Below the pieces are notes generated by a model, which saw only the letters and a list, made by a program, of their open reading frames with translations, was not told the origin of the DNA and made no database searches. Below are positions 17,072 through 36,602 of a stretch of DNA of 64,000 nucleotides, piece by piece. The stretch spans positions 1 to 64,000 of the forward strand of contig JALHMY010000044.1 of assembly GCA_022843805.1 (NCBI GenBank), in the 5' to 3' direction. A program made the translations under genes and the position numbers. This stretch comes from Fuerstiella sp. (GTDB lineage: Bacteria > Planctomycetota > Planctomycetia > Planctomycetales > Planctomycetaceae). Position 1 is the stretch's first letter; every line of letters begins with the position of its first letter.

Positions 17072-20000
17072 CTACCGGGTCTGGTCAACTACCAGATCCT
17101 CTGACAACTGCACGGAGTTCGCCTTTCTGGCGGCATACGAAGTAAACGCCAGTTCTTTGCTTTCCAGAATCTCCTGATTGTAGCTGCCATCAAATTCAAA
17201 GATCACGGATCCCGACTCGGACCTGCGAATTGAGGTGCTGACTTCTTCAGGTCTGAATCGGCTGTTGAGTTCACGCACATCCCGCTGTCCAATCTGAACC
17301 CGCACATCTTCCGGAGCGTTGTCCGGGGCATAAGGCGCGCCGGGAACGCGATCGAGTCGAACCTGCAGTACTCCCGTCTCCATCAGCCGTGTCCAGACTG
17401 TAACGACTGGCAGACCGGACCCATCTCCTCCAATCTTTCGAGTTTTCTCAGGTCGATCTTCGTTCCTGAGATCACTCCAGGGCAATGTGATTTCGGGTGG
17501 AGTGTTCTCAAACTTCCAGAAGGCATTAATGAGCACATCGTGTTGTTTGGGCCATGCATCGACGGACAGGGTCCATGCTGGCGCGCCATATTGGGACGTG
17601 AATTTTTCCACGACGTTTGCCGGCTCAAAATCGGATTCCCGTGCTCTTACTCTGAACTCAATTTCTGAAGGCTGCCGAACAGATCGGCGAACATTTCGAT
17701 GATCGAGCATCACGCTGACTTCCATTTTTGCCATTGCTGCCGGACCGCCGGAACCGGTGTCTATGATTTTCGCCGGTTCCGCTGCGCGAAGGATTGACGG
17801 GCGATCATCGCCAAAGTCTGCACTGGCACTCGCCTTCATCTGTGACTCAACATCCCGCAGAAATCGAAACTGCCGCTGTCGCAGATCCAGATTGACCTTC
17901 AAATGATCACCCGGGCTGAGAAAAATGGGGGCATCATCCGGCGTTTGCAGCTCGTCAAAATGGATGCTGTAAGCACTCCCGGGCTTCAAATCTGAGACCG
18001 TACTTCCCAGTTCGGCAGGCTGCGGCTGAGAGGCTGCGTCACTCAGTTTCAGCTCAAATTTCCTGGGAGGCAGTGACTGCTGAATTCGAGTGAGCAACTG
18101 GCCCTTGTCGGCCGCATCGATCACGCGAATACCACACTTCTTAACAAAGATCTCCTCGAGTGATTTTCGTTCCGGGTTATCTGCATTCAGGTCAAACGCC
18201 ACAATGAAGACTTTGCTGTCTGATTTGCGCGCCAATGCCTCAATCAGTGCTTTTTCCCTGCCGTCATTTTCCGCCTGATTACCAGCGTCAGTGGATTGTC
18301 CAACGTCTTTTGCCTCACCGTCCGTAACAGCAATCACAATTCCGGCGTTATTTCCGAGATCCACATTTAGTGCCTGAGTAATTGCTGTGGCCAGAGGTGT
18401 AATTCCCCAGGGCGTCAGTTTACGCAGTTTTTCGATCACCGAATTGAAGTCGTTTCGACCCGTCTCATTCATGATGGTCATCGGCAACTCGGTTTCAATA
18501 TCCTGAAGAGCACCCAGGTTGTCGGGGATTGGCTTGTTAAAGAGTGCCTTGTATGGAGGGTCATTCGGTTCGTGCTTTTTTGACGTTCCATTATAATTCA
18601 TTCGATGGCCGTAGACTTTCAGACTGACCCGAGTATCAGCGAGCGACTGTCGCTCAATCAGTTCCGCCAAAGTATCGAGTGCTGCCTGTGCACGAGTTTC
18701 CTTTCCGCCTGGCAGTCGAGCCTTCATGCTGCTCGACCAGTCCAGTATCAGAACAATGGGGCGAGGGTCAGAGCCGATAACGGTCACACTCGCCGATGCC
18801 GGGCGAGCCACTCGAGTCGTGACAAACTCAGCCCCCGCACACGGGTTGATTTTCAATGAAGGCTCGCTGCTCCATGTTCGGCCTCTGAAGAATGCCGTTG
18901 TCTTCAGGGCCAGATGCTCACAGCCATCCCCACCGGGATTGCCACTTCTGGCAACAACCAGTTCCAGTGGAGAAGTGGTTGCCGTCAAAGACAGTGGTTG
19001 CGCGTTGTTTTCAATTGAGACCGGGAGTCTGCCAGTCAATGCTCCTCCGGATGTGACCAGCAGAGATGCAATCCCCTGTTGTCCCGAGCTGTTTTCAATC
19101 TTTATATCGACGCCAGTGGTCCGTCGGGAAACATTCTGGTCACTGAGGTCCACGGTACTAATCGCGGGAGCCGTAACAAACCGCAGATCTTCAGAGGCCT
19201 GAAGGCGAGATGTGGCGTCATTCAGGGCCTGTGTGATGAATGGCGGTGTGGTGCCCCCGGATGTGCGAAGAGCATCCGCAGACTGCCGCGCCTGTTTTAG
19301 CCATGCGTCACACATTTGGGCGTACCAGCCGTTGCGCACCCATGGACTTCGATCCCCGGTGTCCACCCACTGACCATCCGCCAGTCGTTCGGCGTGAAGC
19401 ATACAATACTCGTAGCGATCCAGCTGATTCAGTTTTTCGTTCGCTGGCCGACTGCTGTCGAATTCAATCTCGGCATCAAATCCCGGGAGCAGTCCTGACC
19501 GCTGATCGGCGGTTCTCAGCATTTCATGTGATTCCGGACCAGCGGCAATCATCGCCTCTCGAATTGAACTGCGACAATTCTTCCATGCTGTACGGATTGC
19601 CAAACCAAATTCCGCAAGGCCTTCATGCTGTCGATCGGCGGAATCCTCCGGTGCGAGTCTCGCGATTGCACTCCATGCTGCAGATGCCGGATGCGGCCCT
19701 TCGGCCGGGGCAATCAGATTGAGATACTGCAGATGCCATAAAGCCACCTCGCGATCCCTCGCTGCTTTTCGAGTCGCAACCGGGGAGGAATTCTCTGTTG
19801 GTGGGGCTGACAAGCTTCCGGGAATCGCGGATTCCTCCTGTGGTTCACTGAGTTTCCTGTTCCAGTCCACCACCTTCCTGACCACTCGCACGCGGCGAGC
19901 AGCGGAAGCATGATCGAGGGCGAGCGCGGCATTGAGTTGCCCGAAGATCTGCAATTGCGCTGTGCGAGTTGCCGGGTCTGCGTCCAGACACCGTTTGCAC

Positions 20001-22093
20001 AATTCCTCCGACAGGTTTTCAATGTTTTCCAGAGATCGCGAAACGGACTGGTTCCATTCATCAATAGCCGCTGCATGCTTACGCAGTTCAGCCTCCGGGA
20101 AACCACCTTCCGGCTCCGAGACAGACATCGCGGACTGAAGACCACGGGCCAGAATGAACTGCCGGGCGGCTTCCGCCTGCAGCAACTTCACTGCGGCTTC
20201 GATATCGGTCTCTGTGGTTGCTGAAATCGATTCGATCCGACTCAAAAGCTGATCGCGCAGCACGGCTGTCATTGGGACTGCCGCTGAATTGGCTGCCAGC
20301 ACATCGGCTGCCATCAATTCGCGCAATTCCAGCGGTGTGAACGGGGCAGCGTTCGCACACCAGCGAGCCAGTCCCGGAGCGGCGACCATGACTTTCGAGA
20401 GTGACATTTCGGCCGTCTGCATCGCTCGTGCAAAAGCTTCACACGCCTCAAACGATGCGTGTGCCGGATCCGTTCCCGGGGACGCAGTCGATTCCCGACG
20501 AACGAACAACTGATCCTCCTGCCTTAACAAACCGGCTTCCGCCGCTCGTACTGTTTTCTTCAGACGATTGGCCACACCGAATAAACCGGCAACCGCATTC
20601 TCCGCATCCCGCCTGCGATTCTCTGCCCTGCTAAGCTCATCACCCGCAGGGGGTGTCAGGCCGATCTGCTCCCAGGGAAACGCCTGCAACTGGCGTAATA
20701 ACACCTGTTCCTGCAGCGTGTCTCTGGGCAATTCCTGACTTTGAACGGCTTCGCTTTCATTCCACAGGCTGTTCAGGCGACTGAATGCCGGAAAACCCTC
20801 AAACCATTTCCTGGGAAGACCTCGCTCTTTATTCAGGCTCTCCGGCGGACCACAACGTTCGTCGCAGTTCCGCACGAGCGCCTTCAGTAACTCGGTCCCG
20901 CGTGTCAGGGACTGTTCTGCGTTCTGCGAATGTCCATTCAGCCAGGCAAACTCAGACTTGTACAAATAATCTGATGCGGCGTTCCACAAAAGCGGATTCC
21001 ATCGCCAGGCACAGCGTTCGTACAAATCTTCACGGAGCTTCCACTGTTCCTCAAGTCTCGCGAGGAATTCCGGATCAGTCCCGGACGCAACAGAAAGCGA
21101 TCCGGCAGGCAGGTTTTTCATCACGACGAAGTTCAGTGGATTCTCAGGACCTTTGAGCGACAAAGGATCCGGAAGAATCTGCACCTTCTGACCTGCCTGA
21201 TTCCTGTTATTTTTCACCCAGTCATCTGTATGCGTGGCCACAAAGTCACAGAATTCCGAGACCTGCAGCAAACCATTGCCGTCCGCATCCGCCAGCTGAC
21301 TGAATCCAGCCCCGACAAATTTTCCGAACACGGTGGTGCCACCGGATCCGGGCCCGAACGTATGGCCGGATTCCGTGTCGGCAGCACCAACCATCACGAC
21401 AAGCTGACCCAGGCTTTCCGTCCAGCTGCGCAGTTGTTCAAAGACCGTACTCCTTACGTAGCCCAGACGCCACTCATTTGCCAAAGGAGGAATATCCACA
21501 AGCAGCAGGAAATTCTTTGCAGGATGCTGCTGCCTGAAGGCCGTCAGGCTTTCAGACAGTTTCTGCAGGGGTTCATACTGGCTGTCATCAAAATCGAGGC
21601 CGGGGGTGCTGTTGCGAATCAGGCATCTGAAGCCGCCGTCAGCGTCAGGAAGAAAGACTGTCTGCAGGTAAATCACGATCACATCGGCCTTTTTGAATGC
21701 TTCAGCGGCGTCTCCTTCCGGCGCCCTGGCAAGGTCGAGTGTATTCAACGGACTCTGACTAATACGAACGGCACTCCGATTATATTCTGCTGCGGTGGCG
21801 GCAAACGACAGGTCCGGAGTTGCGGCCGGATCAAAGTCCGCAGACCCTGCCAGCAAGTCCATCACCAGAAAATGGGTTCTGACCTGCTGGGCAGCCCAGT
21901 ACATGTAGATCGTCAGGGCGACCAGCATGGTCAGCGCAACGACAGGCCCCAAAAGGCGAAAGCGGGACTTCCTGCGGCCGCCGGTCGCCTGACTGCTGCG
22001 GGATTTTTTCCATGTGGGCTGCGCCTGTTCTTCCTTCTCACGCCCGCGTCGAGACTTGCCTCCACGCCATCCCTGATCGCTGCCGGATGTCAT
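17072..22093 (-). CDS. Giant membrane-anchored vWA protein of the TssM-like operon
   Basis: A 1673-residue protein. A charged cytoplasmic tail is followed by one membrane helix (about 47-68), so most of the protein is outside the cytoplasm. Residues about 70-300 resemble a caspase-like (peptidase C14) domain ending in an EF-hand loop (DADGNGLLQVSE near 268), but no Cys-His dyad is visible. A long helical, Ala/Glu-rich middle follows. A von Willebrand A domain (about 1105-1330) has an intact metal site: DWSSSM, the later TPLATAI and VTDGE. The C-terminus is beta-rich. Its ATG overlaps the stop of the TssM-like gene (ATGA), with GGAGGTGA just upstream, so the two are translationally coupled. 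I infer a role in the T6SS membrane complex; no homologue of known function is recognised. Confidence 0.75.
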   Translation of the reverse strand: MTSGSDQGWRGGKSRRGREKEEQAQPTWKKSRSSQATGGRRKSRFRLLGPVVALTMLVALTIYMYWAAQQVRTHFLVMDLLAGSADFDPAATPDLSFAATAAEYNRSAVRISQSPLNTLDLARAPEGDAAEAFKKADVIVIYLQTVFLPDADGGFRCLIRNSTPGLDFDDSQYEPLQKLSESLTAFRQQHPAKNFLLLVDIPPLANEWRLGYVRSTVFEQLRSWTESLGQLVVMVGAADTESGHTFGPGSGGTTVFGKFVGAGFSQLADADGNGLLQVSEFCDFVATHTDDWVKNNRNQAGQKVQILPDPLSLKGPENPLNFVVMKNLPAGSLSVASGTDPEFLARLEEQWKLREDLYERCAWRWNPLLWNAASDYLYKSEFAWLNGHSQNAEQSLTRGTELLKALVRNCDERCGPPESLNKERGLPRKWFEGFPAFSRLNSLWNESEAVQSQELPRDTLQEQVLLRQLQAFPWEQIGLTPPAGDELSRAENRRRDAENAVAGLFGVANRLKKTVRAAEAGLLRQEDQLFVRRESTASPGTDPAHASFEACEAFARAMQTAEMSLSKVMVAAPGLARWCANAAPFTPLELRELMAADVLAANSAAVPMTAVLRDQLLSRIESISATTETDIEAAVKLLQAEAARQFILARGLQSAMSVSEPEGGFPEAELRKHAAAIDEWNQSVSRSLENIENLSEELCKRCLDADPATRTAQLQIFGQLNAALALDHASAARRVRVVRKVVDWNRKLSEPQEESAIPGSLSAPPTENSSPVATRKAARDREVALWHLQYLNLIAPAEGPHPASAAWSAIARLAPEDSADRQHEGLAEFGLAIRTAWKNCRSSIREAMIAAGPESHEMLRTADQRSGLLPGFDAEIEFDSSRPANEKLNQLDRYEYCMLHAERLADGQWVDTGDRSPWVRNGWYAQMCDAWLKQARQSADALRTSGGTTPPFITQALNDATSRLQASEDLRFVTAPAISTVDLSDQNVSRRTTGVDIKIENSSGQQGIASLLVTSGGALTGRLPVSIENNAQPLSLTATTSPLELVVARSGNPGGDGCEHLALKTTAFFRGRTWSSEPSLKINPCAGAEFVTTRVARPASASVTVIGSDPRPIVLILDWSSSMKARLPGGKETRAQAALDTLAELIERQSLADTRVSLKVYGHRMNYNGTSKKHEPNDPPYKALFNKPIPDNLGALQDIETELPMTIMNETGRNDFNSVIEKLRKLTPWGITPLATAITQALNVDLGNNAGIVIAVTDGEAKDVGQSTDAGNQAENDGREKALIEALARKSDSKVFIVAFDLNADNPERKSLEEIFVKKCGIRVIDAADKGQLLTRIQQSLPPRKFELKLSDAASQPQPAELGSTVSDLKPGSAYSIHFDELQTPDDAPIFLSPGDHLKVNLDLRQRQFRFLRDVESQMKASASADFGDDRPSILRAAEPAKIIDTGSGGPAAMAKMEVSVMLDHRNVRRSVRQPSEIEFRVRARESDFEPANVVEKFTSQYGAPAWTLSVDAWPKQHDVLINAFWKFENTPPEITLPWSDLRNEDRPEKTRKIGGDGSGLPVVTVWTRLMETGVLQVRLDRVPGAPYAPDNAPEDVRVQIGQRDVRELNSRFRPEEVSTSIRRSESGSVIFEFDGSYNQEILESKELAFTSYAARKANSVQLSEDLVVDQTR

Positions 22094-23760
22094 TCGTCAC
22101 CTCCATAGAGCCAGTTTGAATAAATCCAGAAGGTTGCAGCGGCCATCAGCAGGGCAGCAATAAAGAAGAAGACAGACAACAGCCTTGAACGATGCTGCGA
22201 CCGCACCAGCTGAGGCGCCCACGCAACGTCACCCTGAGATTCGGGCAATTTATCCAGAACCCCTCTGACAAATCCCTGCTCCGTCGATGCGCGACCAGTC
22301 GCAGAAAAATAAACTCCATGAAGCCGCGGATAGGGCCGGACAATCCGATAAATGCTGTCTCGCAGCAAAGTTACCAGAGCATCTCGGCGCTGGCTGATCT
22401 CACACAGCATGTGAAACAATTTCTGATTATCCCGATTATCAATGTCGTAACTGAATGCCGTGTAGACCCAGCCACGAAACCACTGCATGCCTCGATCAAT
22501 CACCCATTCTGCGTTTCGATCATTCACATCGGCACCCGCCGCAAAACTGGAGCCCGCCCGCGACAGGCGAAGCCCAGGCTGGAGTCGCTCCGCACGCAGC
22601 AAAAATTCCTTCATGCCACTGATTGCGTCCAGTTCTGTGATCACTGTCACAACCGGAAACTGCAACTGAAAAGCTTCATGGACCGTCTTTAAATCATCTC
22701 GAATTGCGGGAGCCAGTTTGCGTGCGTAATCCAGCTCAGAAGCCCAGGAAAAAGGCACGGCCTGCAGCATGCCATTAATGGGACAAAACGGCTTTCGAGC
22801 CGCAGTGATCAGGTGACAGAGAAACTGCATTCTGCGAACACCAATATTTGATTCCATCTCTGAAATCGGCGTGACTCGCTTCTTGCCATACCCCTTCACA
22901 CTGCCCTTGTTAATCGCCGAAAACGTCTCCATGGCCCGCTTGAGCCCGCCGGGGGCCATGGTGCCAAAGAACGCTCCAATGCCCCGCGACTGAGTTGCGG
23001 TGGGGCCTGAAGGCGCGGCGGCGGCCGCTGCCGCCGGAGGAGCCAGCATTCCTGAGGGAGCAGTTCCCGTGATGGACTTCATCTGGGAGACAGCGGCCTT
23101 CAAATCACCAGCCTGTCGAGTTCCTGTAATTCCACTCAGGCCCAGCTTAAAAGTGCCGGACGATGACGTCGAATCAGAAACTTCCACAACCTTGCCCTGC
23201 TGACAGTTGGTGGTTCCAACACCTGAACAGCAAAGAAAAATCGCATCATCCCGTGCAAACACCCGGACCACAGCAGACCCCTGTACAAGCGGGGGCGCTA
23301 TCACCCTCCACTCAATATTCGCTCCCGCCTCGAAGGCGCTTTGCTCCTGCTGCGGAGTAAACCCGTTGACCAGAAACAACGGCAGATCATCGATATAAAG
23401 TCGCTCCCGGTCCAGCGCTGCAATAATTTCCTTCCAGTCAGCTTCGATATCAGGAAATTCACTTTCATCCTCAATACCCAACAGCTGCATCAGATACAGC
23501 ACCACACGAATAATGGCGTAAATCAGCAGCCACATTGCGCCGCACCACACCCGGTCCAGCCATGCGGGAATCTGCATTTCCTGCGGCACTGGCAGAAGCC
23601 GTCGGATCTCAGGACTGAAAAATCCGAGCAGGATTGCCATCACAGCAATGAACGAATAATGGATCGTCAGATAAAGACGAGGTGATCCCACTGCCGAACG
23701 CGGCACAACTCCGAACAGCCACTTAAGCCACTCCAGAGCTTTGTAGAAGAATGTTGCCAT
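22090..23760 (-). CDS. tssM: TssM-like (ImcF) protein lacking the periplasmic domain
   Basis: A 556-residue protein matching the cytoplasmic half of TssM/ImcF/IcmF, the inner-membrane scaffold of T6SS. Two helices lie at about 30-50 and 73-95. The segment LPLFLVNGFTPQQEQS sits where TssM has its P-loop but has no Walker A residues. An Ala/Pro linker near 245-260 follows. Residues about 300-500 match the ImcF region (FPVVTVITELDAISGMKEF, then RGWVYTAFSYD). A third helix (about 525-548) is followed by only a few residues, whereas typical TssM continues for hundreds of periplasmic residues. It lies between two genes for giant anchored proteins, 41 bp after the first and overlapping the second by 4 bp. 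The family call is from motif order and topology. Confidence 0.7.
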   Translation of the reverse strand: MATFFYKALEWLKWLFGVVPRSAVGSPRLYLTIHYSFIAVMAILLGFFSPEIRRLLPVPQEMQIPAWLDRVWCGAMWLLIYAIIRVVLYLMQLLGIEDESEFPDIEADWKEIIAALDRERLYIDDLPLFLVNGFTPQQEQSAFEAGANIEWRVIAPPLVQGSAVVRVFARDDAIFLCCSGVGTTNCQQGKVVEVSDSTSSSGTFKLGLSGITGTRQAGDLKAAVSQMKSITGTAPSGMLAPPAAAAAAAPSGPTATQSRGIGAFFGTMAPGGLKRAMETFSAINKGSVKGYGKKRVTPISEMESNIGVRRMQFLCHLITAARKPFCPINGMLQAVPFSWASELDYARKLAPAIRDDLKTVHEAFQLQFPVVTVITELDAISGMKEFLLRAERLQPGLRLSRAGSSFAAGADVNDRNAEWVIDRGMQWFRGWVYTAFSYDIDNRDNQKLFHMLCEISQRRDALVTLLRDSIYRIVRPYPRLHGVYFSATGRASTEQGFVRGVLDKLPESQGDVAWAPQLVRSQHRSRLLSVFFFIAALLMAAATFWIYSNWLYGGDE

Positions 23761-23801
23761 TCAGTGAATACCTGACATGTTAGTTTCGTGAATACTCGAA
23801 T

Positions 23802-26800
23802 CTACTTCGCGACCTTATCGACTTCCACAGGAACCGTCTCACCGCTCTTGACGGTTACCGTTGTCTTACCCGCACTCAACCCGCCTTTGGTAACCCAGTC
23901 AACCCCATAAGAATCCGGTGGCAGGTTGCTGAAAGAAACAACTCGCTTTCCCGTCTTCGAGTCGAATTTTCCCTTCGTTTTTCCTCTGACAGAGACAATA
24001 AAATCAAAGGGATTTGATCCGGGGAATTTGACTTCAATCCCGCCCGGCGGTTCAGTGGATGGAGGTGGAACACGAGCCGCGCGAAACATGGTCACCTGCT
24101 TCTTCAACAGGGTCTTTAGCCCGGCACCATTGACCACTTCGACTGTCAAAGACACTTCCCTCGCCTTCTCCGTCGACTGCTCTTCAAGCTCCGGAAAGCC
24201 CTGCGACGGCTGGATGACAAATTTCCCCGACTGACGTCCGGGTACTCCTTCCAGCACAACATTCTGCAGCATGGCTGGGTCAAACCCAACGCGAATTGCC
24301 TGAATACCCGATTCACCATCCGTTGCTCGAACGGTCCCTGTTAACGGTAGTGTCACGTTATGTCGACCGGGCATGTCGACGACAATCTCCGCCTCCTTTG
24401 GCGATGTCGCATCAACGGTAAAATCGGCCCAGCCGTCGTAAGTGACACTTCGATCATTAACATTCTGCAGGGCAGCACGCAGCTCATATTTTCCGTCCGA
24501 CAAACCGTAACCCTGCAGCTCAAGTCCGTCCCGGGACCACGGTGTACTACTTGTGGAAAAATTCCATGCACCTGCTTCCCCGGGAGAAACGAGGACCTGT
24601 TCGAGGTATCGTCGACGGAGCTGAATGGGCTGATCGGCCGCCGGAATGCGTCGATCGGATACGCGATTACGAACGCTGAACCCGACTTCCCAGTCGCGAT
24701 TAAACTCAGCACCATACAAATAGACATCGGCCCGCAACCGGGCCTTCGGCCATGCCTCGCCGATCAGCAACTCAGGCACAACCTGCACCGGCTTCACTTC
24801 AGCGTCGTTCAATACCTGCAGGTCCACGCGAACAGCTGGTTCGTCTCCCGCATCAATCAGAACAGGATTCCCATTGGTCAGACGCCATCTCCACGGATAT
24901 GGTATTCCTGCCAGACGAAGTGCAAACTCCTTCCCGGTATTGTCAGAACGTTCGATATCCGGGCTAAACTGGAATCGTAACTCCTGGCCATCAGGAAGAA
25001 GATTTGGGAAGGCGTAGGCGCTACCCGGGAGCAGGTATTGCCGCAGAGTCGGACTAAAATAAACGTCGACCGGCATTTTTGCAGGCAGCAGTGCAGAACG
25101 ATCCTCGACGATCGATCGGTCCAGTCGCAAAGTGAGCGTGTTTGAAGCATGGTCATACTGGGGAGACGGACGGCGAACAAACTGCTCCGGTGGAGAAAAC
25201 ACAAAAGCAACCTCAATTGACGTGGTCACTTTCTGCAGTACATCTTCCGGTGTCACATCGAGCCGAAATCCTTCGGAAAAATCAAGCGACGGAATGACAG
25301 GAGGCTGTCCGGTCGCCGGAGGTGCTGCGGCAGCCGGCGCAGGTGCCGGTGCCGTCAGTGAAACCTGGACTGAAGCGGAACCGGGTACTGCCGGATCAGG
25401 CTTCAGCTCCAGACTTTGAGGTGTCGGCCAGACGGGAATTCCGGATTCCAGATGAAACAGCTGAATGCTGACACGACTGGACGCACCACTGCGGCGGCGA
25501 AGAACAAACGACAAAGGAACGGGCGTATCCATCCCGGTCACCATGTCTTTTGTGGATGGCAGCAGAGTCAGTCGCCTTCGTACACGATTGGCCAGAGGCT
25601 CCAGTCGGCTAAGCCGCATTTCCCGACCATCAGCATGAACAAAACTGATGTCCCAGTCGGCTTTCGAACTTGGATAAATGGTCAGCGGCCTGATTACTGT
25701 GACCGCATCCCAGTCATTGACCGCAGCTGCAAGCAGGGTCACGGGTTCCCGAATTGACGATCCGGACCGCAGCTCAACAACAGCCTTTTCGTTTGCATCT
25801 GCCGGAATGTTTATTCTGTGCCAGTTGCGATCAATTTCCGTGCCCGCGTTTGAGACTGTCATTCCACCCTGAAGCACATAAACCGCGGCCGCGTTTTTTA
25901 AATCGACCACCAGCTGCGTCTGGTTTTCCGCATCAAGCTCCAGTTTGTCGTTTTCCAGACTCATTTCGACAAACGCAGAACTGTGAGATGAACCTGTCAG
26001 CTCTCGCTCAATCACTTCATAAACACCATTTCTGCTGGCATCCAGTCGGCCCTGGACGTCACGTGCCACCAGAGCTGTGATTTGATCCAGGCTGGCAAAT
26101 ATTTTGTCCTGTTCGGCATTTGAACGGCTTTTCGCCACTGCAATCCAGGTGTCCCTGAGCTGATGTGCCAGCTTCGTTCGACTCCTGATGACCGCGTCGT
26201 TGTCGGCCCCGTCCAGCGCCTCCACAAAATCTTTCCAGAGTGACCACAACTGTGAGACCCCTTCCGCCTCAGGGGCTGCGGCCATGGCCAGACGGATCGA
26301 CCAGAAACTGTACCAAACGCCTGAGTTACTAAGGCCGTCTGAACCGGATCTGCTGGCCTGTCTGCCTGTCCGATTCAGTCCTGCCAGCAGTTCCTGTCGC
26401 TGAGAAAGAACGGGGATTTCAAGCAGACGTCGTCTTTCTGCAGCAGAAACCTGCTTCACAACTCGATCATTTAAATATCCGCGAAGGAGCGAAAGACGCT
26501 GCAAATCCGAGGCATCAACCGGTTTTTCGGCGAAATTTCGTGTGAGTGCAAACATAGCACTTAGGTGCTCACGCCGAAACCCGATTGTGTCGAGCTGCCC
26601 CTGGGGGAAATGTGATTCAATGTCCTGGCCTTCAATGGCTGCCGCGGCCATCCGCAAAACTGACTTACGCTCTTCCGGTGCCAGCACCACCTGCTCCTGC
26701 TGGTAGGCAAGATACTGGATAAGCCACATGGTCTTTTCCAGCTGCCCATCTTCCACCGTTGTCAGCTCATGAAATCCCGACACGTCAGAACGCAGAAGCT

Positions 26801-28718
26801 GCAACTGCTCTTCGGCGGAGTTCAGTCTGTCCTTTGCCAGCAATAACCCGGCCGGACCTGCAGTAAGCCAGCGTTCCGCAACAGTCAGCCGTCGAAGAAT
26901 CTGCAAAACGGCTTCGCGACTCTGTTCCCAGACCAAACGACGCATCAACCTGCCGTCATTCAGAGTTCCGGAAGCGATCTGAAGCGTTTCGCTGCGGAGC
27001 TGTATCAGTTTCAGCAGGTCTGCCAGAACGGCTGAATGCCATGCAGCATCATTACCTGTAAAAACATCTCGTAATGAAGAGAACTGATGCGGGAGTTCCT
27101 CAGCCGGCCATCCTGCGTCCTTCATCGTCTGGATGAATTTCACCGGAGCATTCATCCGCTTTTGTACGTCTTCCGGGGCAAGCCCCGACATTTTTCCTGC
27201 GATGTCAGCGAGATCGTTCATGAACCAGGTGACAAAGGCCTGACGAGCTCTGCCCTTTACCCGCAGTTCCACCGGCAATGACGGAACTTTGTCGGCACTC
27301 GTCCTGAATGACTCCAGCACCCCCTGAAACAAAACCCGGTCCGCATCCGTGACGGTTTGCGGGGGGTTGACCCATTGAATCACCTTCTCACGTCCCTGAA
27401 GTGATAATGTGACAAGTTCCTGGTCCTTCAGTTTTTGCATCAGAGATCGACACTGATCGTGCAGCTGTCGGAAGTCACTCAGGTCCTCGTTCAGAAGGCA
27501 CTTTTCAGCGGCCATCAGCATCGATTGCAGACGCTGCCATTCGACCGGCACAATTACCGGAACCATGCCTGCCTCTGAGATTTGGTCACGAATTGCGAGA
27601 AGTGCTGAGAGTTTTGCCGCGGGAGTTTCTGTTTCGACTGCCGGATCTGCCTTCTTTGCGGGTGTATCACCCTGGCCCTCGCCCTGCTTTGCCTCGGGCG
27701 ATGCTGCTGCCTGAACCTTTTCCTTTACCGATGCGGGCAAATCCATTCGCGATGGCAGCAATGCTCGGGCCAGCAATTCCTTATCCGATGCCTTATTGCT
27801 GCCTGTCAGTTTCTGAACCGTCTGTTTTTCACCCACATTGCTGTCCACCCAGCTGGCAACACCCGTCCTGACAAACTGGAACAGCTCGTCGGCAGTGGAT
27901 GTCTTTCCGGCCATGAACGCTTCGTTTACAAAATGTCCGAATACTGTTCCATGAAACTGGCCTGATAGCCCCGACGGGGCAACAGCACTTTTATCTTTTG
28001 CTGAATCAGCATTGTCGACCGCAGACGAAGCGAAAAACTCCCAGCTGCGTTCCCCGGAATCGCACGACACAATCACCGTCAGGTCTGGAACACCGGAATT
28101 TTCGACCTCCGCCGAGAGCACTGGCAGTAAATCGTTGCCCAGGATACCTGAAGAGAATCCGGGCTGCCGATTACCCAGCTCAAGCAGCACCACGATTTGC
28201 CCGGCAGAAAGTGACTTCAGACGCTGCAGAATCTCGGTCCATCGCACTGGTACTGCTCCTGCCCTGCCTGCCAGGAATTCCGTGGCAGGTGGGTTGCTGG
28301 AGTCATCACCGGGGACCACCCAGGCGTCAGCTGCGAGATAGAGAACGAGCTTCTCACCAGGCTCTACAGAAGCAAAGCCTGACTGCAGAAAGTCCGCAAA
28401 TGAAAACGGTCCGGCTGGTGTGCTGATCAGAGACGCATTTCGATCTCGCAGCAGACTGAGCGTATTCTGCAATTCCACAACATTTGTGGCGGCCGACAGG
28501 TTTGAGAGCGGAATCGCCATCGTGGGATCCGCTTCAAAGTCCTGCTCAAAAACCGACGAATAGTGCAGCAATGGCACTCTGGGCCGAAATATCAGATACA
28601 GAAACCCGGCAACAAGTACGCTCAGAAGTGTGCCGATAAAGAGCACCTGCCTGCGTCTTGCTCCGCGAACCCTGCGGCTTTTTTCCGGACGCCATGAACG
28701 CCCTCGACCTGTCGACAC
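23802..28718 (-). CDS. Giant membrane-anchored protein with degenerate caspase-like domain
   Basis: A protein of about 1638 residues, first gene of the operon. A basic tail and one membrane helix (VLFIGTLLSVLVAGFLYLIF, about 27-46) place the bulk outside the cytoplasm. Residues about 50-300 look like the same caspase-like fold as in the 1673-residue neighbour: VIVSCDSGERSWEFF and VFGHFVNEAF are in the right order, but the catalytic His and Cys are not evident. A long alpha-helical middle follows, then an Ala/Pro-rich linker near 1120 and beta-sandwich modules, with an Ig-like ATDGESGIQAIRVGFDP segment near 1490. I chose GTG 28718 because GGGGGAG lies 7 bases upstream; TTG 28724 is too close to it. 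Function is unknown; I infer a T6SS envelope role from the TssM-like neighbour. Confidence 0.72.
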   Translation of the reverse strand: MSTGRGRSWRPEKSRRVRGARRRQVLFIGTLLSVLVAGFLYLIFRPRVPLLHYSSVFEQDFEADPTMAIPLSNLSAATNVVELQNTLSLLRDRNASLISTPAGPFSFADFLQSGFASVEPGEKLVLYLAADAWVVPGDDSSNPPATEFLAGRAGAVPVRWTEILQRLKSLSAGQIVVLLELGNRQPGFSSGILGNDLLPVLSAEVENSGVPDLTVIVSCDSGERSWEFFASSAVDNADSAKDKSAVAPSGLSGQFHGTVFGHFVNEAFMAGKTSTADELFQFVRTGVASWVDSNVGEKQTVQKLTGSNKASDKELLARALLPSRMDLPASVKEKVQAAASPEAKQGEGQGDTPAKKADPAVETETPAAKLSALLAIRDQISEAGMVPVIVPVEWQRLQSMLMAAEKCLLNEDLSDFRQLHDQCRSLMQKLKDQELVTLSLQGREKVIQWVNPPQTVTDADRVLFQGVLESFRTSADKVPSLPVELRVKGRARQAFVTWFMNDLADIAGKMSGLAPEDVQKRMNAPVKFIQTMKDAGWPAEELPHQFSSLRDVFTGNDAAWHSAVLADLLKLIQLRSETLQIASGTLNDGRLMRRLVWEQSREAVLQILRRLTVAERWLTAGPAGLLLAKDRLNSAEEQLQLLRSDVSGFHELTTVEDGQLEKTMWLIQYLAYQQEQVVLAPEERKSVLRMAAAAIEGQDIESHFPQGQLDTIGFRREHLSAMFALTRNFAEKPVDASDLQRLSLLRGYLNDRVVKQVSAAERRRLLEIPVLSQRQELLAGLNRTGRQASRSGSDGLSNSGVWYSFWSIRLAMAAAPEAEGVSQLWSLWKDFVEALDGADNDAVIRSRTKLAHQLRDTWIAVAKSRSNAEQDKIFASLDQITALVARDVQGRLDASRNGVYEVIERELTGSSHSSAFVEMSLENDKLELDAENQTQLVVDLKNAAAVYVLQGGMTVSNAGTEIDRNWHRINIPADANEKAVVELRSGSSIREPVTLLAAAVNDWDAVTVIRPLTIYPSSKADWDISFVHADGREMRLSRLEPLANRVRRRLTLLPSTKDMVTGMDTPVPLSFVLRRRSGASSRVSIQLFHLESGIPVWPTPQSLELKPDPAVPGSASVQVSLTAPAPAPAAAAPPATGQPPVIPSLDFSEGFRLDVTPEDVLQKVTTSIEVAFVFSPPEQFVRRPSPQYDHASNTLTLRLDRSIVEDRSALLPAKMPVDVYFSPTLRQYLLPGSAYAFPNLLPDGQELRFQFSPDIERSDNTGKEFALRLAGIPYPWRWRLTNGNPVLIDAGDEPAVRVDLQVLNDAEVKPVQVVPELLIGEAWPKARLRADVYLYGAEFNRDWEVGFSVRNRVSDRRIPAADQPIQLRRRYLEQVLVSPGEAGAWNFSTSSTPWSRDGLELQGYGLSDGKYELRAALQNVNDRSVTYDGWADFTVDATSPKEAEIVVDMPGRHNVTLPLTGTVRATDGESGIQAIRVGFDPAMLQNVVLEGVPGRQSGKFVIQPSQGFPELEEQSTEKAREVSLTVEVVNGAGLKTLLKKQVTMFRAARVPPPSTEPPGGIEVKFPGSNPFDFIVSVRGKTKGKFDSKTGKRVVSFSNLPPDSYGVDWVTKGGLSAGKTTVTVKSGETVPVEVDKVAK

Positions 28719-30106: not shown

Positions 30107-32839
30107 TCAGTTCAGCGTATAGACAAACTCACCGGCACTGTTTGCGTCAACCGCCGCTTTGGAGATGCCGACTCCCTCAGCCATCTTCGACAACAGCTCA
30201 GCTGACATCTGAGGCAGCATGGTACCTGTCAGGATCTTATCCACGTTTCTAGCACCACTGTCAACCTCTGTACAACGGCTGACAATCAGATCGAGTACGG
30301 CGTCCGTCCATGTAAATTCCGCATCGTAATGCTCGCGAATACGATTCGCGATTTTGCCAAGCTTCAGTACAGCAATTTTTCGCATTACCTGATCGCTGAG
30401 CGGGAAGTAGGGGACGACCGTAATTCGGCCAAGAAAAGCCGGCTTGAACGATTTCAGGAGTTCCGGATGCATTGCTTCGGCAAGGGCTTCAGGACTTGGC
30501 ATCGTCTCCGGGTCAGCACAGAGCTTCATGATCGTGTCGGTTGCAGCGTTTGACGTCATCAGGATGACGGTATTGCGGAAGTCGATATCACGACCTTCCC
30601 CATCCTTCATATTTCCCTTGTCAAATACCTGATAAAAGACGTCCTGAACACCCGGATGAGCCTTTTCCATTTCGTCGAGCAGAACAACACTGTACGGTTT
30701 ACGACGAACTGCTTCTGTCAGCACTCCGCCTTCTCCATAACCGACGTATCCCGGAGGCGAACCCATCAGCATTGACACTTTGTGCTCTTCCTTGAACTCA
30801 CTCATATTGATGGTGGTCATATTCTGTTCGCCACCATACAGAAGTTCTGCCAGCGTGATTGCCGTCTCTGTTTTGCCCACACCGCTGGGACCAACAAGGA
30901 AGAATACGCCAATCGGTCGACTGGGATCTGTCAGGTTGGCTCTTGATGTTCGAATTCTCTGAGCGATCGCCTCGAGTCCATGTGACTGACCAACGACCTT
31001 TTCCTCCATGCGATCCTTCAGCTTCAGAATGGTGTGGATTTCATCGCTCACCATTCGACCTACCGGAATGCCGGTCCATGAAGACACAATTTCAGCCACG
31101 GCCTGCGAATCAACACAAGCCTGAAGCAGGGGATTTTCTCCCTGGACTGCAGCCAGCTGCTTATTCAGATCGGCAAGTTCAAGAAGCAGTTTTTCACGTT
31201 CTGCAGCAGTCAGTTCCGCAGGGGCTGCGGCGGGTGCCGCCGCACCTCCGGCACCAGCCGCAGGTGCCGGTTTACCGTCAGTTGCTGCAGGTGCGAGAGC
31301 CGGAAACGATTTTCCTGAAAGACGCTGTCTGACGTCGCGAACCTTGTTGACCAGGTCCTTTTCCTTCAGCCACTGCTCCTTAAGCTCCTGATAACGTACT
31401 GTGTTTTCTGCCTTTCGCTGAAGCAGTTTTTCCAGGTCCTCCGCATGATCGGTACCCGTAGCAGTTTCCCTCTGAAGGACGTCGATCGCTGTTGATGTCT
31501 GATCGATGGTCCTCTGACAGTCCTCAAGTGCAGGTGGAATCGTGGTATGTCCAATCGCCACCCTCGCACACGCGGTATCGAGCAGACTCACAGATTTGTC
31601 CGGCAGCTGACGTCCGGAAATATAGCGATTGGAAAGTCGAACCGAATCTTCCACCGCCTCGTTGAGGATCTCGATTCGGTGATGTTTCTGCAGAGTATCA
31701 ACAAGGCCTCGCATCATTGCGATGGCCTTCTCTTCGTTCGGTTCGTCGACCTTAACCACCTGAAACCGGCGAGCAAGAGCCGCATCTCGTTCAAAGTACT
31801 TTTTGTATTCTGCCCATGTCGTGGCAGCAATCGTTCGCAACTCCCCGCGAGCCAGAGCAGGCTTTAACAGATTCGCTGCATCTCCCTGCCCCGCCTGACC
31901 TCCAGCGCCGATCAGCGTATGAGCTTCATCAATGAACAGAATGATCGGAGTAGAAGATCGATTCACTTCATCAATTACAGATTTGAGTCGGTTTTCGAAC
32001 TCCCCTTTAACACCGGCACCCGCCTGCAGCAGACTGAGGTCCAGCGTGCGTACGGCAACGGTCTGCAGTGAAGGTGGCACATCGCCCTGAGCAACCCGAA
32101 GAGCAAATCCTTCCACCACGGCCGTTTTTCCGACCCCTGCCTCACCCGTCATGATCGGGTTGTTCTGTCGCCGCCGCGTCAGGATGTCGATAATCTGTCG
32201 AATTTCCTGATCACGCCCCAAAACCGGATCGATCTTTCCTGCTTTGGCACGAGCCGTCAGGTCAATGGTGTACTGATCCAGCGAAGGTGTCTGCGTCGGT
32301 CCGCCGCCTTTACCCGTGGTACCCGGGGACCCTGCTGCTGTCCGAACCTGGTCCGTACCAGCTTCTGAACTGTCTGCGACGATACTGGGAAGATCTTTGC
32401 TGAGCTTTTCAGCGGAAATCTTCGAGAACTCATTCGAGATGCCCTGTGCAATCTGCATCAGAGAGCGATCTGTAATCAGTGCCAGCAGCAAATGACCGGA
32501 ACGCGTCAAACCAGCATTATAGTCGATCGAACCAAGTACCCATGCTTCCCTGGCAAGATCGACCACGTGCTGAGACAAAAGTGGCTGACTTGAATTGCCG
32601 GTTTTGAGCCGATCGATGGATTTCATCACATCGGTTGTCAGCCGCGAAACATCGACTCCAAATGACTTGAAAATTGCGTGTATGTCGTTCTGTGAACCTT
32701 CGAGAAGCTTCAGAAGCCAGTGCTCAATCTCCACATTATAATTGGATCGGGAGAGGCAGAGCCCCGCCGCGCCTTCCAGAGTCCGGGTACATGTACTGTT
32801 CAGCTTGCCAATCAGCGATTTCAGGTTTACAGAGGCCAT
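30107..32839 (-). CDS. tssH: T6SS AAA+ ATPase ClpV (TssH)
   Basis: A 910-residue Clp/HSP100 ATPase. ClpV disassembles the contracted TssB/TssC sheath so that subunits can be reused. The N-terminal Clp repeat domain (about 1-160) begins LKSLIGKLNSTCTRTLEGAA, typical of ClpV. The first ATPase domain has GEAGVGKTAV with Walker B ILFIDEAHTLIGAGG. A coiled-coil region follows, then a second ATPase domain with GPSGVGKTETA and VVLLDEMEKAHP. The linker before the second domain is interrupted near residue 530 by an Ala/Pro/Gly-rich stretch of about 35 residues. It is the last gene of the T6SS operon, 215 bp after tssG, and its ribosome-binding site is weak. Confidence 0.95.
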   Translation of the reverse strand: MASVNLKSLIGKLNSTCTRTLEGAAGLCLSRSNYNVEIEHWLLKLLEGSQNDIHAIFKSFGVDVSRLTTDVMKSIDRLKTGNSSQPLLSQHVVDLAREAWVLGSIDYNAGLTRSGHLLLALITDRSLMQIAQGISNEFSKISAEKLSKDLPSIVADSSEAGTDQVRTAAGSPGTTGKGGGPTQTPSLDQYTIDLTARAKAGKIDPVLGRDQEIRQIIDILTRRRQNNPIMTGEAGVGKTAVVEGFALRVAQGDVPPSLQTVAVRTLDLSLLQAGAGVKGEFENRLKSVIDEVNRSSTPIILFIDEAHTLIGAGGQAGQGDAANLLKPALARGELRTIAATTWAEYKKYFERDAALARRFQVVKVDEPNEEKAIAMMRGLVDTLQKHHRIEILNEAVEDSVRLSNRYISGRQLPDKSVSLLDTACARVAIGHTTIPPALEDCQRTIDQTSTAIDVLQRETATGTDHAEDLEKLLQRKAENTVRYQELKEQWLKEKDLVNKVRDVRQRLSGKSFPALAPAATDGKPAPAAGAGGAAAPAAAPAELTAAEREKLLLELADLNKQLAAVQGENPLLQACVDSQAVAEIVSSWTGIPVGRMVSDEIHTILKLKDRMEEKVVGQSHGLEAIAQRIRTSRANLTDPSRPIGVFFLVGPSGVGKTETAITLAELLYGGEQNMTTINMSEFKEEHKVSMLMGSPPGYVGYGEGGVLTEAVRRKPYSVVLLDEMEKAHPGVQDVFYQVFDKGNMKDGEGRDIDFRNTVILMTSNAATDTIMKLCADPETMPSPEALAEAMHPELLKSFKPAFLGRITVVPYFPLSDQVMRKIAVLKLGKIANRIREHYDAEFTWTDAVLDLIVSRCTEVDSGARNVDKILTGTMLPQMSAELLSKMAEGVGISKAAVDANSAGEFVYTLN

Positions 32840-33089
32840 AGCTCATTTCTAATTCAAGAGGCTATAAACGGAATCAGATTAAGACACACGGAATGTTGAG
32901 CCGCCTCGCATTCCGTCAACTAACAGGAGAACCGCGTCACAGTACTTCGTGCTACGGACTAAACAAACCTCCATATTGTATACATCGCCACCTGCCTAAT
33001 TTACCCAGCATTAATATCTTCAACGCCGTCAACTGTGAATACCGGTTTCGACGATCACGGGTTTCGAAGATTACCGGTTTCGAAATCAC
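32840..33089. other. tssG-clpV gap and micro-repeats at the tssG end
   Basis: The 215-bp gap 32840-33054 contains no gene and only a weak 6-bp hairpin (GGAATG / CATTCC). At its right edge, running into the last codons of tssG, the unit TTCGAAACCGGT (minus strand) recurs about three times with 16-18-base spacing over 33041-33089, with one or two changes per copy. Confidence 0.5.
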
Positions 33090-34233
33090 ACAGCTGGAAG
33101 CGGAACACGGCATCACCAATGTCGGCAACAGACTCCTCTGACTTGCCAACCCATGTTGTCCACCCCAGTCTGGGTTCATAACCAGGCCGTGCACCGATCT
33201 GGCACAAGGGTACATCCTCCCGACGAAGAATCAACTGAATGTCAAAGTCCAGACTGATGCCAATATAAAACCGGATCATCTCGGAAACCGCTGCAAGTCG
33301 ATCCCTGCCGGGCAGCAACGACTTGAATTCAGACCATTTCAGAGGGCCTATGGATATTCGGATGCGACTCTGTACATCCCAGACCTGCGACCCGACAACC
33401 GTATTTTCACCAAGAGCACAGTTCAGGCCGCCACGATACTGCCGCGAAGGCGTGCACGTCTGACTGTCTTCCGGCAGATAAAGCCACTGACCACAAAACT
33501 GAATCACCTGCGCTTTAAAACCGAAATAGTGGCTCAACAGCTGTTCCAGGCTTCGGGCATTTCTGGTGCGAGCGGCAAACAGGCCGCCATAATACAGAAT
33601 GGCATGATCATCGAATATAAACCGGTCATGCAGCGACCTGTGACCAATTCCAACGAGACAGAAGAGACAGCTGGTGAAGAGATCGTCTGCCAGCGATCCT
33701 TCAAGCATTCGCCGTTCATAAGTAAATGGAAATCGATATTTTTCCCATGCCCTGTAGAACAGCGAAATAGCTCTGTGATTAAACAGGTCAAAAAACTCTT
33801 TTAGCGTGTAGTCCTTTGTACGGAGATGAGTTCGCTCAATCACCAGCGACGTATAATGTTCGGGAAGCACACCCCCTGGACCAGTCAAACCCATAAATGG
33901 CACGGTCATTTCGACTGGCCAGGCCAGATCCTTCTCATCCGTTTCCGGTACAGTGTTCGCTGACTGAGTGTCCTGCAGTTTTCGAGATGCCGGCACTTTC
34001 AGCGAAGCGATTTGTCCCGCCGGAAACGTCAGTGATGGCAGGGCACGAAAACGCACCGGCTCCAGCTGCGGTCCTTCATCACCACCAACCGGACTAACCG
34101 GAGGGTCGATGTGATGCTGCTCCCGCACTGCGCGTTCAATCAGACGAACAGCCTGAAAGAACTCAAACTGTTCCGGATAGCTGAGAAGCTCGTGAATTAA
34201 ATCAGGGCCCGATCGCCCGCCCTCGGCGGCCAT
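33055..34233 (-). CDS. tssG: T6SS baseplate protein TssG (ImpH/VasB)
   Basis: A 392-residue TssG. TssG joins TssF, TssE and TssK to form the wedge of the T6SS baseplate. The early segment LLSYPEQFEFFQAVRLIER is a hallmark of the family, as is the FLGLTGPxGVLPxHYT-type segment, here FMGLTGPGGVLPEHYTSLV. The length is slightly above the usual 330-350. The start overlaps the 3' end of tssF by 37 bp, consistent with coupling. Confidence 0.93.
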   Translation of the reverse strand: MAAEGGRSGPDLIHELLSYPEQFEFFQAVRLIERAVREQHHIDPPVSPVGGDEGPQLEPVRFRALPSLTFPAGQIASLKVPASRKLQDTQSANTVPETDEKDLAWPVEMTVPFMGLTGPGGVLPEHYTSLVIERTHLRTKDYTLKEFFDLFNHRAISLFYRAWEKYRFPFTYERRMLEGSLADDLFTSCLFCLVGIGHRSLHDRFIFDDHAILYYGGLFAARTRNARSLEQLLSHYFGFKAQVIQFCGQWLYLPEDSQTCTPSRQYRGGLNCALGENTVVGSQVWDVQSRIRISIGPLKWSEFKSLLPGRDRLAAVSEMIRFYIGISLDFDIQLILRREDVPLCQIGARPGYEPRLGWTTWVGKSEESVADIGDAVFRFQLCDFETGNLRNP

Positions 34234-36047
34234 TTCCAGCTTTCTATGCCGCGAGCATGCCGGCCATGAGTTGTTGCGGTCAGTTTTGTGAAAGAATTAA
34301 TAGACGTGTACATTGCAAAGAAATGATCGAGAATTGAAGCGAACAGGTAGGCACTATCGCCCTTAAAGTTCTCCTCATCGAACAGAACCTGAATCTGAGT
34401 ACCTCGCGCAAATGCTCCGTTAACGCGCTGTACGCACGCTTCACTGGTAATGCGTTCCAGGCCGTCAATCAGGTTTCGGGTCTGTGCGGATTCCCGCACA
34501 TCATTCAATGCCAGCATCTCCCTGACGGATTGTACGGCGTCAGCGGATCCGACCAGGGAGAGATGGTTCAGGGAGAGCTGGGAAACGAGCGGCCAGAGAT
34601 TCCGACGCCCCAAATGCCGCCGAAGTGTCGGCGTCGGCGGAACCAGACATCTGATTTCAGTGACCGGTCCTCTTCCCCCCACAATGTCGAAGGCAATCCT
34701 TCCTGCATCCCGCTGTTTAGCGAGTTCTTCGGGCAGATCTCGATTGAAACAGGTCAGATCCGCATACAACAGGCCCTTTCCGGGGCGACGAGGGGAAAAT
34801 TCTGCATCCACGAGCGCCACATACATTTCGGTGGGGTTCTTTAACGTGCCGACATCACCTTCAACCGGCCCCGGCCGACGGGTTCCGTGCCAGTATCCGG
34901 TATCGTCGGAACGCGATGAATGGTCGACCGAATAGAACGGCCTGAATTCTCTGCGGTTGCCGTCCTGGTCATCCACACTGATCCCATCGATTGAGAAAAT
35001 CTCCATCGATTCTTCGGCACGCGCATCCGGTATAATTCGATATTCACTGGTCCTGTAATTCAGGGGAATCGCATCGGCAGTTCGCCGAAACAGATTGATG
35101 ATTGGCGTACAGCCGAGCCGAACGGTATCACGAGAGACTGACGATTCGATTTCGGGCACATGCTCCCGCAGCAAAATCGAGATCTCCAGACGAGTGCCGA
35201 GGCGTGACAGGATTTCCCGTGTTATCCCGGTGATGTCAAAGAACAGGAATTTCTGTGGTAAAACAAAGTACTCGCACAACAGCCGAAAACCGGGAAACGT
35301 CTGCGGGGATTGCGGCAGCATGGCCTCATCCGGGGCAAACCCAACAGCCTTAATCGAACTTGCCGGGAGAATGGCGGCTGCGTGCGAAGTATCAGTTCCC
35401 GTAATAACGACCTCGATCGCCTGTGTACGTACCAGTTCAAGTAGCCGGGACGCCTTTTCAAAGTTCGGGATATTGATAAAGAGCCGCAGGGAGTCCACCG
35501 TATATTCCGCCAGCGGCTTCTTTCGATCAAAGGGCAGAAACTCCATCCTCAGCACCGAAGCCGCATCGTTGCGGCCGGGAGTTGGCGGTCCGGAGAATGG
35601 TCGCGGAAGCAACCTGATGGCTTCAGTATCCAATGGCAGCAGCCGGACAGGAAAACTCGTTCGGAACTGACAGTTATAACCGTGAATACGTTCCGATTCG
35701 ATCAGCATCCCGGATTTCAGCAGGTGTCCGGATGTCTGATCCTTCTGCCCGGGATTCAGACGAAATCCGACAACCGACATTGACGGAACCGGAGCCAGCA
35801 TATGTGGATACAGGATGCCGAGCATCGCGTCAGCGAGTTCCGGGAAACTGTCATCGAGCTTATGTCGAGTGCGGGCGTTCAGATAGGCAAAGGCCTGAAT
35901 CAGTCGTTCGACATGCGGATCCTTGATGCCGGCGGAGCTCAGGCTCAGACGATTGGCAATCTTTGGAAAACGCTCTGCAAATTCTGCCGCACTTTGGCGC
36001 AGGTAATCCAGTTCTCGCTGGTACCATGCATCCAGTGAATCACTCAT
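34197..36047 (-). CDS. tssF: T6SS baseplate protein TssF (ImpG/VasA)
   Basis: A TssF of about 616 residues. TssF is the major wedge protein of the T6SS baseplate, partly like phage gp6. The N-terminus DAWYQRELDYLRQSAAEFAERFPKIA is the family signature, followed by DPHVERLIQAFAYLNARTRHKLDDSFPEL. I chose ATG 36047, which places the start just before the conserved stretch. A GTG at 36059 would overlap the tssE stop and is a real alternative. It is directly downstream of tssE and overlaps tssG. Confidence 0.95.
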   Translation of the reverse strand: MSDSLDAWYQRELDYLRQSAAEFAERFPKIANRLSLSSAGIKDPHVERLIQAFAYLNARTRHKLDDSFPELADAMLGILYPHMLAPVPSMSVVGFRLNPGQKDQTSGHLLKSGMLIESERIHGYNCQFRTSFPVRLLPLDTEAIRLLPRPFSGPPTPGRNDAASVLRMEFLPFDRKKPLAEYTVDSLRLFINIPNFEKASRLLELVRTQAIEVVITGTDTSHAAAILPASSIKAVGFAPDEAMLPQSPQTFPGFRLLCEYFVLPQKFLFFDITGITREILSRLGTRLEISILLREHVPEIESSVSRDTVRLGCTPIINLFRRTADAIPLNYRTSEYRIIPDARAEESMEIFSIDGISVDDQDGNRREFRPFYSVDHSSRSDDTGYWHGTRRPGPVEGDVGTLKNPTEMYVALVDAEFSPRRPGKGLLYADLTCFNRDLPEELAKQRDAGRIAFDIVGGRGPVTEIRCLVPPTPTLRRHLGRRNLWPLVSQLSLNHLSLVGSADAVQSVREMLALNDVRESAQTRNLIDGLERITSEACVQRVNGAFARGTQIQVLFDEENFKGDSAYLFASILDHFFAMYTSINSFTKLTATTHGRHARGIESWKWPPRAGDRALI

Positions 36048-36055
36048 CAGCTGTC

Positions 36056-36541
36056 TCACTTGACATCAAACTGTCCTGTCGAAGATTCCATTGAGGAGTC
36101 AAACTGAATTCGGTGCTTTTTCTCTTCGATAAGGAGCATCGCGTCAATTCGAAAGCGAAATGTCCGATCGAAATAATTGTCGCCCGGCATTCGCTCAATC
36201 CTGAGATCCGTCAGCCGCGGTTCGAAAAGCGTGATGGCCTTCCGAATTGCTCTAATCAGTATGTCCACATCCTGAGAAGCGTTCAGACTCGCCGCAGTAA
36301 AGTCGGGAATTCCGTAATTGATCAGCGAATCATCCAGCTCCACAAGTTCCGGCGGCCAGGCCACACATCGATACCGGGTGTTCAGAAGATTCTGAAGATC
36401 CCGGCGAACAGCCTGCTGAACAATTCGGAGCTTTTGCCCATCATCAAGGGGGGCCTCCACCGATGTTCCCGGGTCATCATCAAGCAGCCGATCCAGCACC
36501 GAAAGGCGAATGCCCAGCCTGTCTCCGGGTCCTGTACTCAT
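36056..36541 (-). CDS. tssE: T6SS baseplate protein TssE (gp25-like)
   Basis: A 161-residue gp25-like protein. TssE sits in the baseplate and starts sheath assembly. Recognisable parts are an N-terminal SVLDRLLDD segment, VRRDLQNLLNTR, the YGIPDF segment, and the late LFEPRLTDLRIERM stretch of the gp25/TssE fold. It lies between tagJ and tssF, 61 bp after tagJ, in the imp-type order. Confidence 0.93.
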   Translation of the reverse strand: MSTGPGDRLGIRLSVLDRLLDDDPGTSVEAPLDDGQKLRIVQQAVRRDLQNLLNTRYRCVAWPPELVELDDSLINYGIPDFTAASLNASQDVDILIRAIRKAITLFEPRLTDLRIERMPGDNYFDRTFRFRIDAMLLIEEKKHRIQFDSSMESSTGQFDVK

Positions 36542-36602
36542 AGACCTGCCGCCACCACAAAACCCAAAGAAATCGAACTCCCGATCAAGGTGCGAATTTC
36601 AG

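What the first reader, a model, noticed from the sequence alone, without database searches (positions are those of the whole stretch)
17072..28718. T6SS membrane complex with a truncated TssM and two giant companions
The 556-residue TssM-like protein has the two N-terminal helices, ImcF region and third helix, but ends there. Normal TssM continues with a large periplasmic domain. The gene is coupled by a 4-bp overlap to a 1673-residue protein and preceded by a ~1638-residue one, both with a short cytoplasmic tail, one helix and a huge outer part. I infer that the outer half of TssM has been replaced by separate giant proteins, which would be a new T6SS envelope design.
Basis: partly seen in the sequence, partly recalled or inferred. 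Interest (0 to 1): 0.88.

Follow-up and report, generated by a model that had tools for sequence, protein, structure and literature searches.

The report
Split TssM with two giant partners
In one class of planctomycete bacteria the molecular speargun called the type VI secretion system has lost the outer half of its main envelope-spanning protein and the lipoprotein it docks to, and instead carries a pair of giant periplasmic proteins with dead-protease and VWA domains, which looks like an undescribed way to anchor this weapon in the cell envelope.

Summary
The 556-aa protein is the inner half of TssM (IcmF domain, three TM helices) and stops just after TM3; 40 of 40 relatives do the same and all lack the Walker A motif of longer planctomycete TssMs. 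This complete genome has no other TssM and no TssJ. The flanking 1638- and 1673-aa proteins are homologous in their N-terminal halves: short tail, one TM helix, catalytically dead caspase fold, long helical part, beta domains, plus a VWA domain in one. Of 150 genomes in the order, 39 have full-length giants, all with short TssM; none of the 108 genomes without short TssM has one. Seven short-TssM genomes of another family carry two giants each; eight genomes with long TssM have none. TssJ is absent from 13/13 short-TssM genomes and present in 12/12 canonical ones. Short TssMs form one clade. Best reading: a planctomycete-specific T6SS membrane complex in which the giants take over the periplasmic part of TssM and make TssJ dispensable. 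The replacement itself is inferred: no fold similarity to the TssM periplasmic domain was seen, and no experiment exists.

The parts
23802..28718 (-). Giant 1 (1638 aa): cytoplasmic tail with conserved SWR motif, one TM helix, huge periplasmic part
   Evidence: homologues in 15 aligned loci
27762..28583 (-). Giant 1 degenerate caspase-like domain (about residues 48-321)
   Evidence: AlphaFold2 model (mean pLDDT 74.6), VIA-align Z 17.5, rmsd 2.9, 190 aligned to MALT1 paracaspase; catalytic His/Cys missing
25995..27623 (-). Giant 1 long alpha-helical region (about residues 368-910)
   Evidence: model secondary structure; fold not assigned
23805..25967 (-). Giant 1 beta-rich C-terminal region
   Evidence: residues 1240-1640 not modelled
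22090..23760 (-). Short TssM (556 aa): TM1, TM2, cytoplasmic IcmF domain, TM3, then stop
22285..22821 (-). IcmF-related_N (PF14331) match inside TssM
   Evidence: E 9.2e-12
17072..22093 (-). Giant 2 (1673 aa): cytoplasmic tail with conserved WRGG motif, one TM helix, periplasmic part with VWA domain
21104..21916 (-). Giant 2 degenerate caspase-like domain (about residues 60-330)
   Evidence: alignment with four Pfam Peptidase_C14 proteins, catalytic His/Cys lost
19187..20644 (-). Giant 2 alpha-helical region (about residues 484-969)
   Evidence: model mfabe58ae7618, mean pLDDT 81.6
18062..18775 (-). Giant 2 VWA domain (about residues 1107-1344), MIDAS DxSxS at D1118/S1120/S1122 invariant in 20 homologues
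   Evidence: (PF13519 E 4.8e-8), (Z 17.8)
45519..46238 (+). TssL/DotU (239 aa, one C-terminal TM)
   Evidence: PF09850 E 6e-16
44002..45417 (+). TssK
30107..42448 (-). Rest of the T6SS cluster: ClpV/TssH, TssG, TssF, TssE, ImpE-like, TssC x2, TssB, TssA

Best explanation
This is the membrane-complex operon of a planctomycete type VI secretion system with a split design. The short TssM, with TssL, forms the inner-membrane and cytoplasmic base that holds the baseplate (TssK side). Its periplasmic half and the outer-membrane lipoprotein TssJ have been lost. Two homologous, TM-anchored giants take over the periplasmic channel or pillar: their tails with the conserved W-R motif sit in the cytoplasm near TssM/TssL/TssK, and their dead-caspase, helical and beta/VWA parts span the periplasm toward the outer membrane. 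[quoted passage not shown] Inferred: direct contact, stoichiometry, and that the giants form the conduit.
For: No other TssM in the genome. No TssJ in 13/13 short-TssM genomes versus present in 12/12 canonical ones. Giants occur in 39 of 42 genomes with short TssM and 0 of 108 without (Fisher p 7e-33, not corrected for relatedness; 21 genera). Seven of seven short-TssM genomes from another family of the class have two giants each, while eight genomes with long TssM have none. Three-gene operon with translational coupling. Uniform truncation point, 1-57 residues after TM3. Short clade 100/100. T6SS otherwise complete: TssA-C, E-H, K, L here, seven Hcp genes elsewhere.
Against: No sequence similarity of giants to canonical or long TssM periplasmic parts by hhalign. 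TssM structures not among the fold matches, though the helical part was barely tested. No outer-membrane anchor recognised in the giants. In the other family (G505) the giants lie about 50 kb from the tss cluster. Three genomes have short TssM without a full-length giant, one of them a complete genome without TssC (G034). Three genomes have TssC without short TssM. No experimental data.
Confidence: 0.68

Rival explanations
1. The giants are T6SS-associated accessory proteins, such as periplasmic sensors or cell-wall or surface binding modules (VWA adhesin, dead caspase as peptide binder) that control or place the machine, while the short TssM works with some other unrecognised periplasmic part.
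For: VWA with intact MIDAS and dead caspase folds are plausible binding modules. No similarity to TssM periplasmic part. Giants unlinked to tss in one family. Other secreted candidates sit nearby: a barrel-like protein in 8 loci and a Cys-rich secreted protein or lipoprotein in about 9 loci.
Against: Co-occurrence is with short TssM in particular: planctomycetes with long TssM have no giants. An optional accessory would not be expected in 37 of 40 TssC genomes of the order.
Confidence: 0.22
2. The short TssM-TssL pair is a general membrane platform that is not dedicated to T6SS here.
For: TssL-TssM without TssC in complete genome G034 and in G113, with a kinase-TssM fusion (L048) and a TssL-TssM fusion (L058).
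Against: In 37 of 42 genomes it goes with TssC; in several loci it is encoded as TssK-TssL-TssM-TssA-TssB-TssC; in the window it lies in a T6SS cluster.
Confidence: 0.06
3. A longer TssM is made by frameshifting or readthrough, as in Citrobacter rodentium.
For: Precedent in PMC4256274.
Against: No poly-A tract at the tssM 3' end, and the next frame starts a separate protein with its own RBS, tail and TM helix; 40/40 relatives end at the same point; no PF06761 sequence anywhere in the genome.
Confidence: 0.01

Closest known systems
Proteobacterial T6SS membrane complex TssJ-TssL-TssM (T6SSi)
   Same: TssL present; TssM N-terminal half with three TM helices and IcmF domain; linked to TssK and baseplate genes
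   Different: TssM stops after TM3 (canonical ones have about 700 residues more), no Walker A, no TssJ, two giant TM proteins added
Bacteroidota T6SSiii membrane complex TssNQOPR (PMC10781749)
   Same: A lineage-level replacement of the canonical membrane complex
   Different: Bacteroidota lack TssL and TssM altogether; here TssL and the inner half of TssM are kept, and the new parts are giants with dead-caspase/VWA domains. No sequence comparison with TssN-R was run.
Acinetobacter non-canonical membrane complex with TsmK and no TssJ (PMC10564176)
   Same: TssJ missing and a catalytically dead enzyme fold recruited (TsmK, ketoacyl-synthase-like; here caspase-like)
   Different: Acinetobacter TssM keeps its periplasmic domain with a GS-linker; here that domain is absent
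Citrobacter rodentium CTS1 TssM length variants (PMC4256274)
   Same: A truncated TssM takes part in a T6SS
   Different: There only the C-terminal beta-domain is missing (variant 1-807), and full-length TssM is also made by slippage and is required
Second long TssM form in other planctomycete families (seen here)
   Same: No PF06761, no TssJ, same phylum
   Different: One chain of about 1360-1610 aa with intact Walker A; its outer part has no similarity to the giants

Membership tests
TssM/IcmF (T6SS) | IcmF-related N-terminal domain | tested here: met
   PF14331 E 9.2e-12; TIGR03348 positions 198-399
TssM/IcmF (T6SS) | Three TM helices around the cytoplasmic domain | tested here: met
   hydropathy at 38, 87, 537; conserved in relatives
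TssM/IcmF (T6SS) | Large periplasmic domain (PF06761 region and C-terminal part) | tested here: not met
   protein ends after TM3; PF06761 absent from whole genome
TssM/IcmF (T6SS) | Genetic link with TssL/TssK and T6SS genes | tested here: met
Canonical TssJLM complex | TssJ outer-membrane lipoprotein present | tested here: not met
   PF12790: 0/13 short-TssM genomes, 12/12 canonical
Bacteroidota T6SSiii | No TssL/TssM | tested here: not met
   TssL and the inner half of TssM are present
Caspase / Peptidase_C14 fold (giants) | Caspase fold | tested here: met
   giant 1 model Z 17.5, rmsd 2.9, 190 aligned to MALT1; region aligns with four C14 proteins
Caspase / Peptidase_C14 fold (giants) | Catalytic His-Cys dyad | tested here: not met
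   both replaced in the window giants
VWA domain (giant 2) | MIDAS motif DxSxS | tested here: met
   D1118, S1120, S1122 invariant in 20
TssM periplasmic fold (giants) | Fold of the TssM periplasmic domain | tested here: inconclusive
   not seen by hhalign or in the rows; helical region not searched alone

The most novel reading that the evidence does not exclude
A planctomycete T6SS envelope design: TssM was cut at TM3 once in the ancestor of the class, its periplasmic half and TssJ were discarded, and a duplicated giant family built from a dead caspase, a helical pillar and VWA or Ig-like domains forms the trans-periplasmic channel, possibly suited to the enlarged planctomycete periplasm.
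Probability: 0.6. Interest if true: 0.87.

Novelty: new variant of a known kind. Interest (0 to 1): 0.8.

Why it matters
TssM is regarded as the central pillar of the T6SS membrane complex. A lineage that lost its outer half and TssJ, but kept TssL, the membrane base and a full baseplate and sheath set, separates what the inner base must do from what the periplasmic part must do. It would be a further independent solution for anchoring a T6SS, next to the Bacteroidota and Acinetobacter ones. Searches that ask for full-length TssM or TssJ would score these systems as incomplete, so planctomycete T6SS may have been overlooked; no paper in the library described it.

Tried and rejected
Sequence link between the giants and the periplasmic part of canonical or long TssM: hhalign gave probability below 2%. 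The idea that the long planctomycete TssM (no PF06761) is a fused TssM-giant: no similarity. Solved-structure sequence search and Pfam with the caspase-like region gave nothing reliable; transitive evidence and a model settled it. Foldseek rows for the whole models are dominated by beta-sandwiches and VWA; TssM did not appear, which is not evidence of absence. Frameshift-made full-length TssM considered and rejected. A first genome-contig scan with the diverse alignment failed for lack of conserved stretches. A phylum-wide giant survey failed twice for technical reasons; a 15-genome one was run instead.

Full report
OBSERVATION. The three genes are as described. Giant 1 is followed after 41 bp by tssM, which overlaps giant 2 by ATGA; a GGAGGTGA ribosome site lies in the last codons of tssM.

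SHORT TssM. The 556-aa protein matches PF14331 (E 9.2e-12) and positions 198-399 of the 1168-position TssM model TIGR03348. Hydropathy gives TM helices at about 38, 87 and 537. In an alignment of 33 relatives all end just after TM3; over 40 the tail after TM3 is 1-57 residues, median 7. None of the 40 has a Walker A or a D(S/T)AG motif, whereas 27 of 27 longer planctomycete TssMs have Walker A. So it is the inner half of TssM, with a degenerate nucleotide site.

NO SECOND TssM. In the 9.2-Mb genome (completeness 100) PF06761, the part after TM3 in normal TssM, has no match even at E 1, and PF14331 hits only this gene. The rest of the T6SS is here: TssA, B, two C, E, F, G, ClpV, K, L; seven Hcp genes lie elsewhere.

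SURVEY, ORDER. Of 150 genomes of the order, 42 have short TssM, 40 have TssC, and 39 have full-length giants (best E below 1e-70). All 39 also have short TssM; 37 have TssC, and the two others are draft assemblies of 540 and 640 contigs. None of the 108 genomes without short TssM has a giant (Fisher 7e-33; relatedness not corrected; 21 genera). Weaker profile hits elsewhere cover only the caspase-like or the VWA region; the four such caspase-region proteins that were checked are Peptidase_C14.

SURVEY, PHYLUM. In 392 genomes three kinds of TssM appear: short (about 540-610 aa) only in two families of the window's class; canonical (about 1130-1350 aa, PF06761) in others; and a long form (about 1360-1610 aa) without PF06761. 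Seven of seven short-TssM genomes of the second family have two giants each, adjacent to one another though about 50 kb from the tss genes in G505. Eight genomes with long or canonical TssM have none. TssJ (PF12790) is found in 12 of 12 canonical genomes and 0 of 13 short ones; of six long-form genomes one has a single hit at E 0.07, below the family cut-off, and the others none. In a tree of the cytoplasmic domain the 39 short TssMs form one group with 100/100 support (the slices used differ slightly between groups).

GENE ORDER. Giant 1-TssM-giant 2 is kept in at least 13 loci, down to about 30% TssM identity, including Thalassoglobus neptunius KOR42 and MAGs named Planctomyces, Planctomicrobium and Schlesneria. 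A second arrangement is TssK-TssL-TssM-TssA-TssB-TssC with a giant nearby.

THE GIANTS. Giants 1 and 2 are homologous over their N-terminal halves (hhalign 100%, 746 columns). Each has a 25-55 residue basic tail with a nearly invariant W-R, one TM helix, a caspase-like domain, a long helical region and beta domains. The caspase assignment rests on the giant 1 model (Z 17.5, rmsd 2.9, 190 aligned to MALT1) and on four other planctomycete proteins hit by the same region, all Peptidase_C14; the catalytic His and Cys are replaced. Giant 2 adds a VWA domain with an invariant MIDAS.

MECHANISM. Shown: absence of the TssM outer half and of TssJ coincides with presence of the giants, within and between families, and the genes are coupled. 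Inferred: the giants are the periplasmic part of the machine. The link to TssM would be through the TM segments or the conserved tails. The outer-membrane anchor is unknown; two conserved neighbours, a barrel-like protein with C-terminal Phe and a Cys-rich secreted protein or lipoprotein, are candidates in some loci but were not found in this window.

LIMITS. No fold match between giants and the TssM periplasmic domain; the helical part was not searched alone. The giant profile was not run across the whole phylum (searches failed). Topology is from hydropathy.

KNOWN SYSTEMS. Bacteroidota replaced TssLM altogether (PMC10781749); Acinetobacter lacks TssJ but keeps the TssM periplasmic domain (PMC10564176); C. 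rodentium makes a shortened and a full TssM (PMC4256274). Literature searches found no planctomycete T6SS membrane complex described; most subscription papers are not in the library.

Noticed in passing
L074-L088 (genomes of other planctomycete families): A second non-canonical TssM: about 1360-1610 aa, Walker A intact, about 1000-residue periplasmic part without PF06761, and no clear TssJ in the genomes tested.
   Followed up: partly
L053:4888-6399, L055:4864-6426, L056:4903-6387, L054:14094-15548, L045, L046, L057, L059: A conserved secreted protein ending in Phe, one member weakly matching an outer-membrane barrel family (PF13557), near TssK-TssL-short TssM in eight loci; candidate outer-membrane part.
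   Followed up: partly
L050:143-1576, L051:242-1558, L046:2450-3334, L045:2077-2982, L036:16734-17885, L042, L044: A conserved Cys-rich secreted protein, in some loci with a lipobox, near the giants.
   Followed up: partly
L048:7804-10674, L049:9062-11835, L058:7009-9222: TssL/TssM modules without TssC: a protein kinase-TssM fusion and a TssL-TssM pair in one complete genome, and a TssL-TssM fusion next to an outer membrane efflux protein in another.
   Followed up: partly
37442-39061 and 39125-40615: Two tandem TssC paralogues in the T6SS cluster, also seen in many relatives; a third, distant VipB-like gene at G000:C23:58378.
   Followed up: no
29123-29761: Secreted Cys-rich 212-aa protein with weak TIGR03000 planctomycete domain next to giant 1, conserved in the same-genus locus L036.
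   Followed up: no
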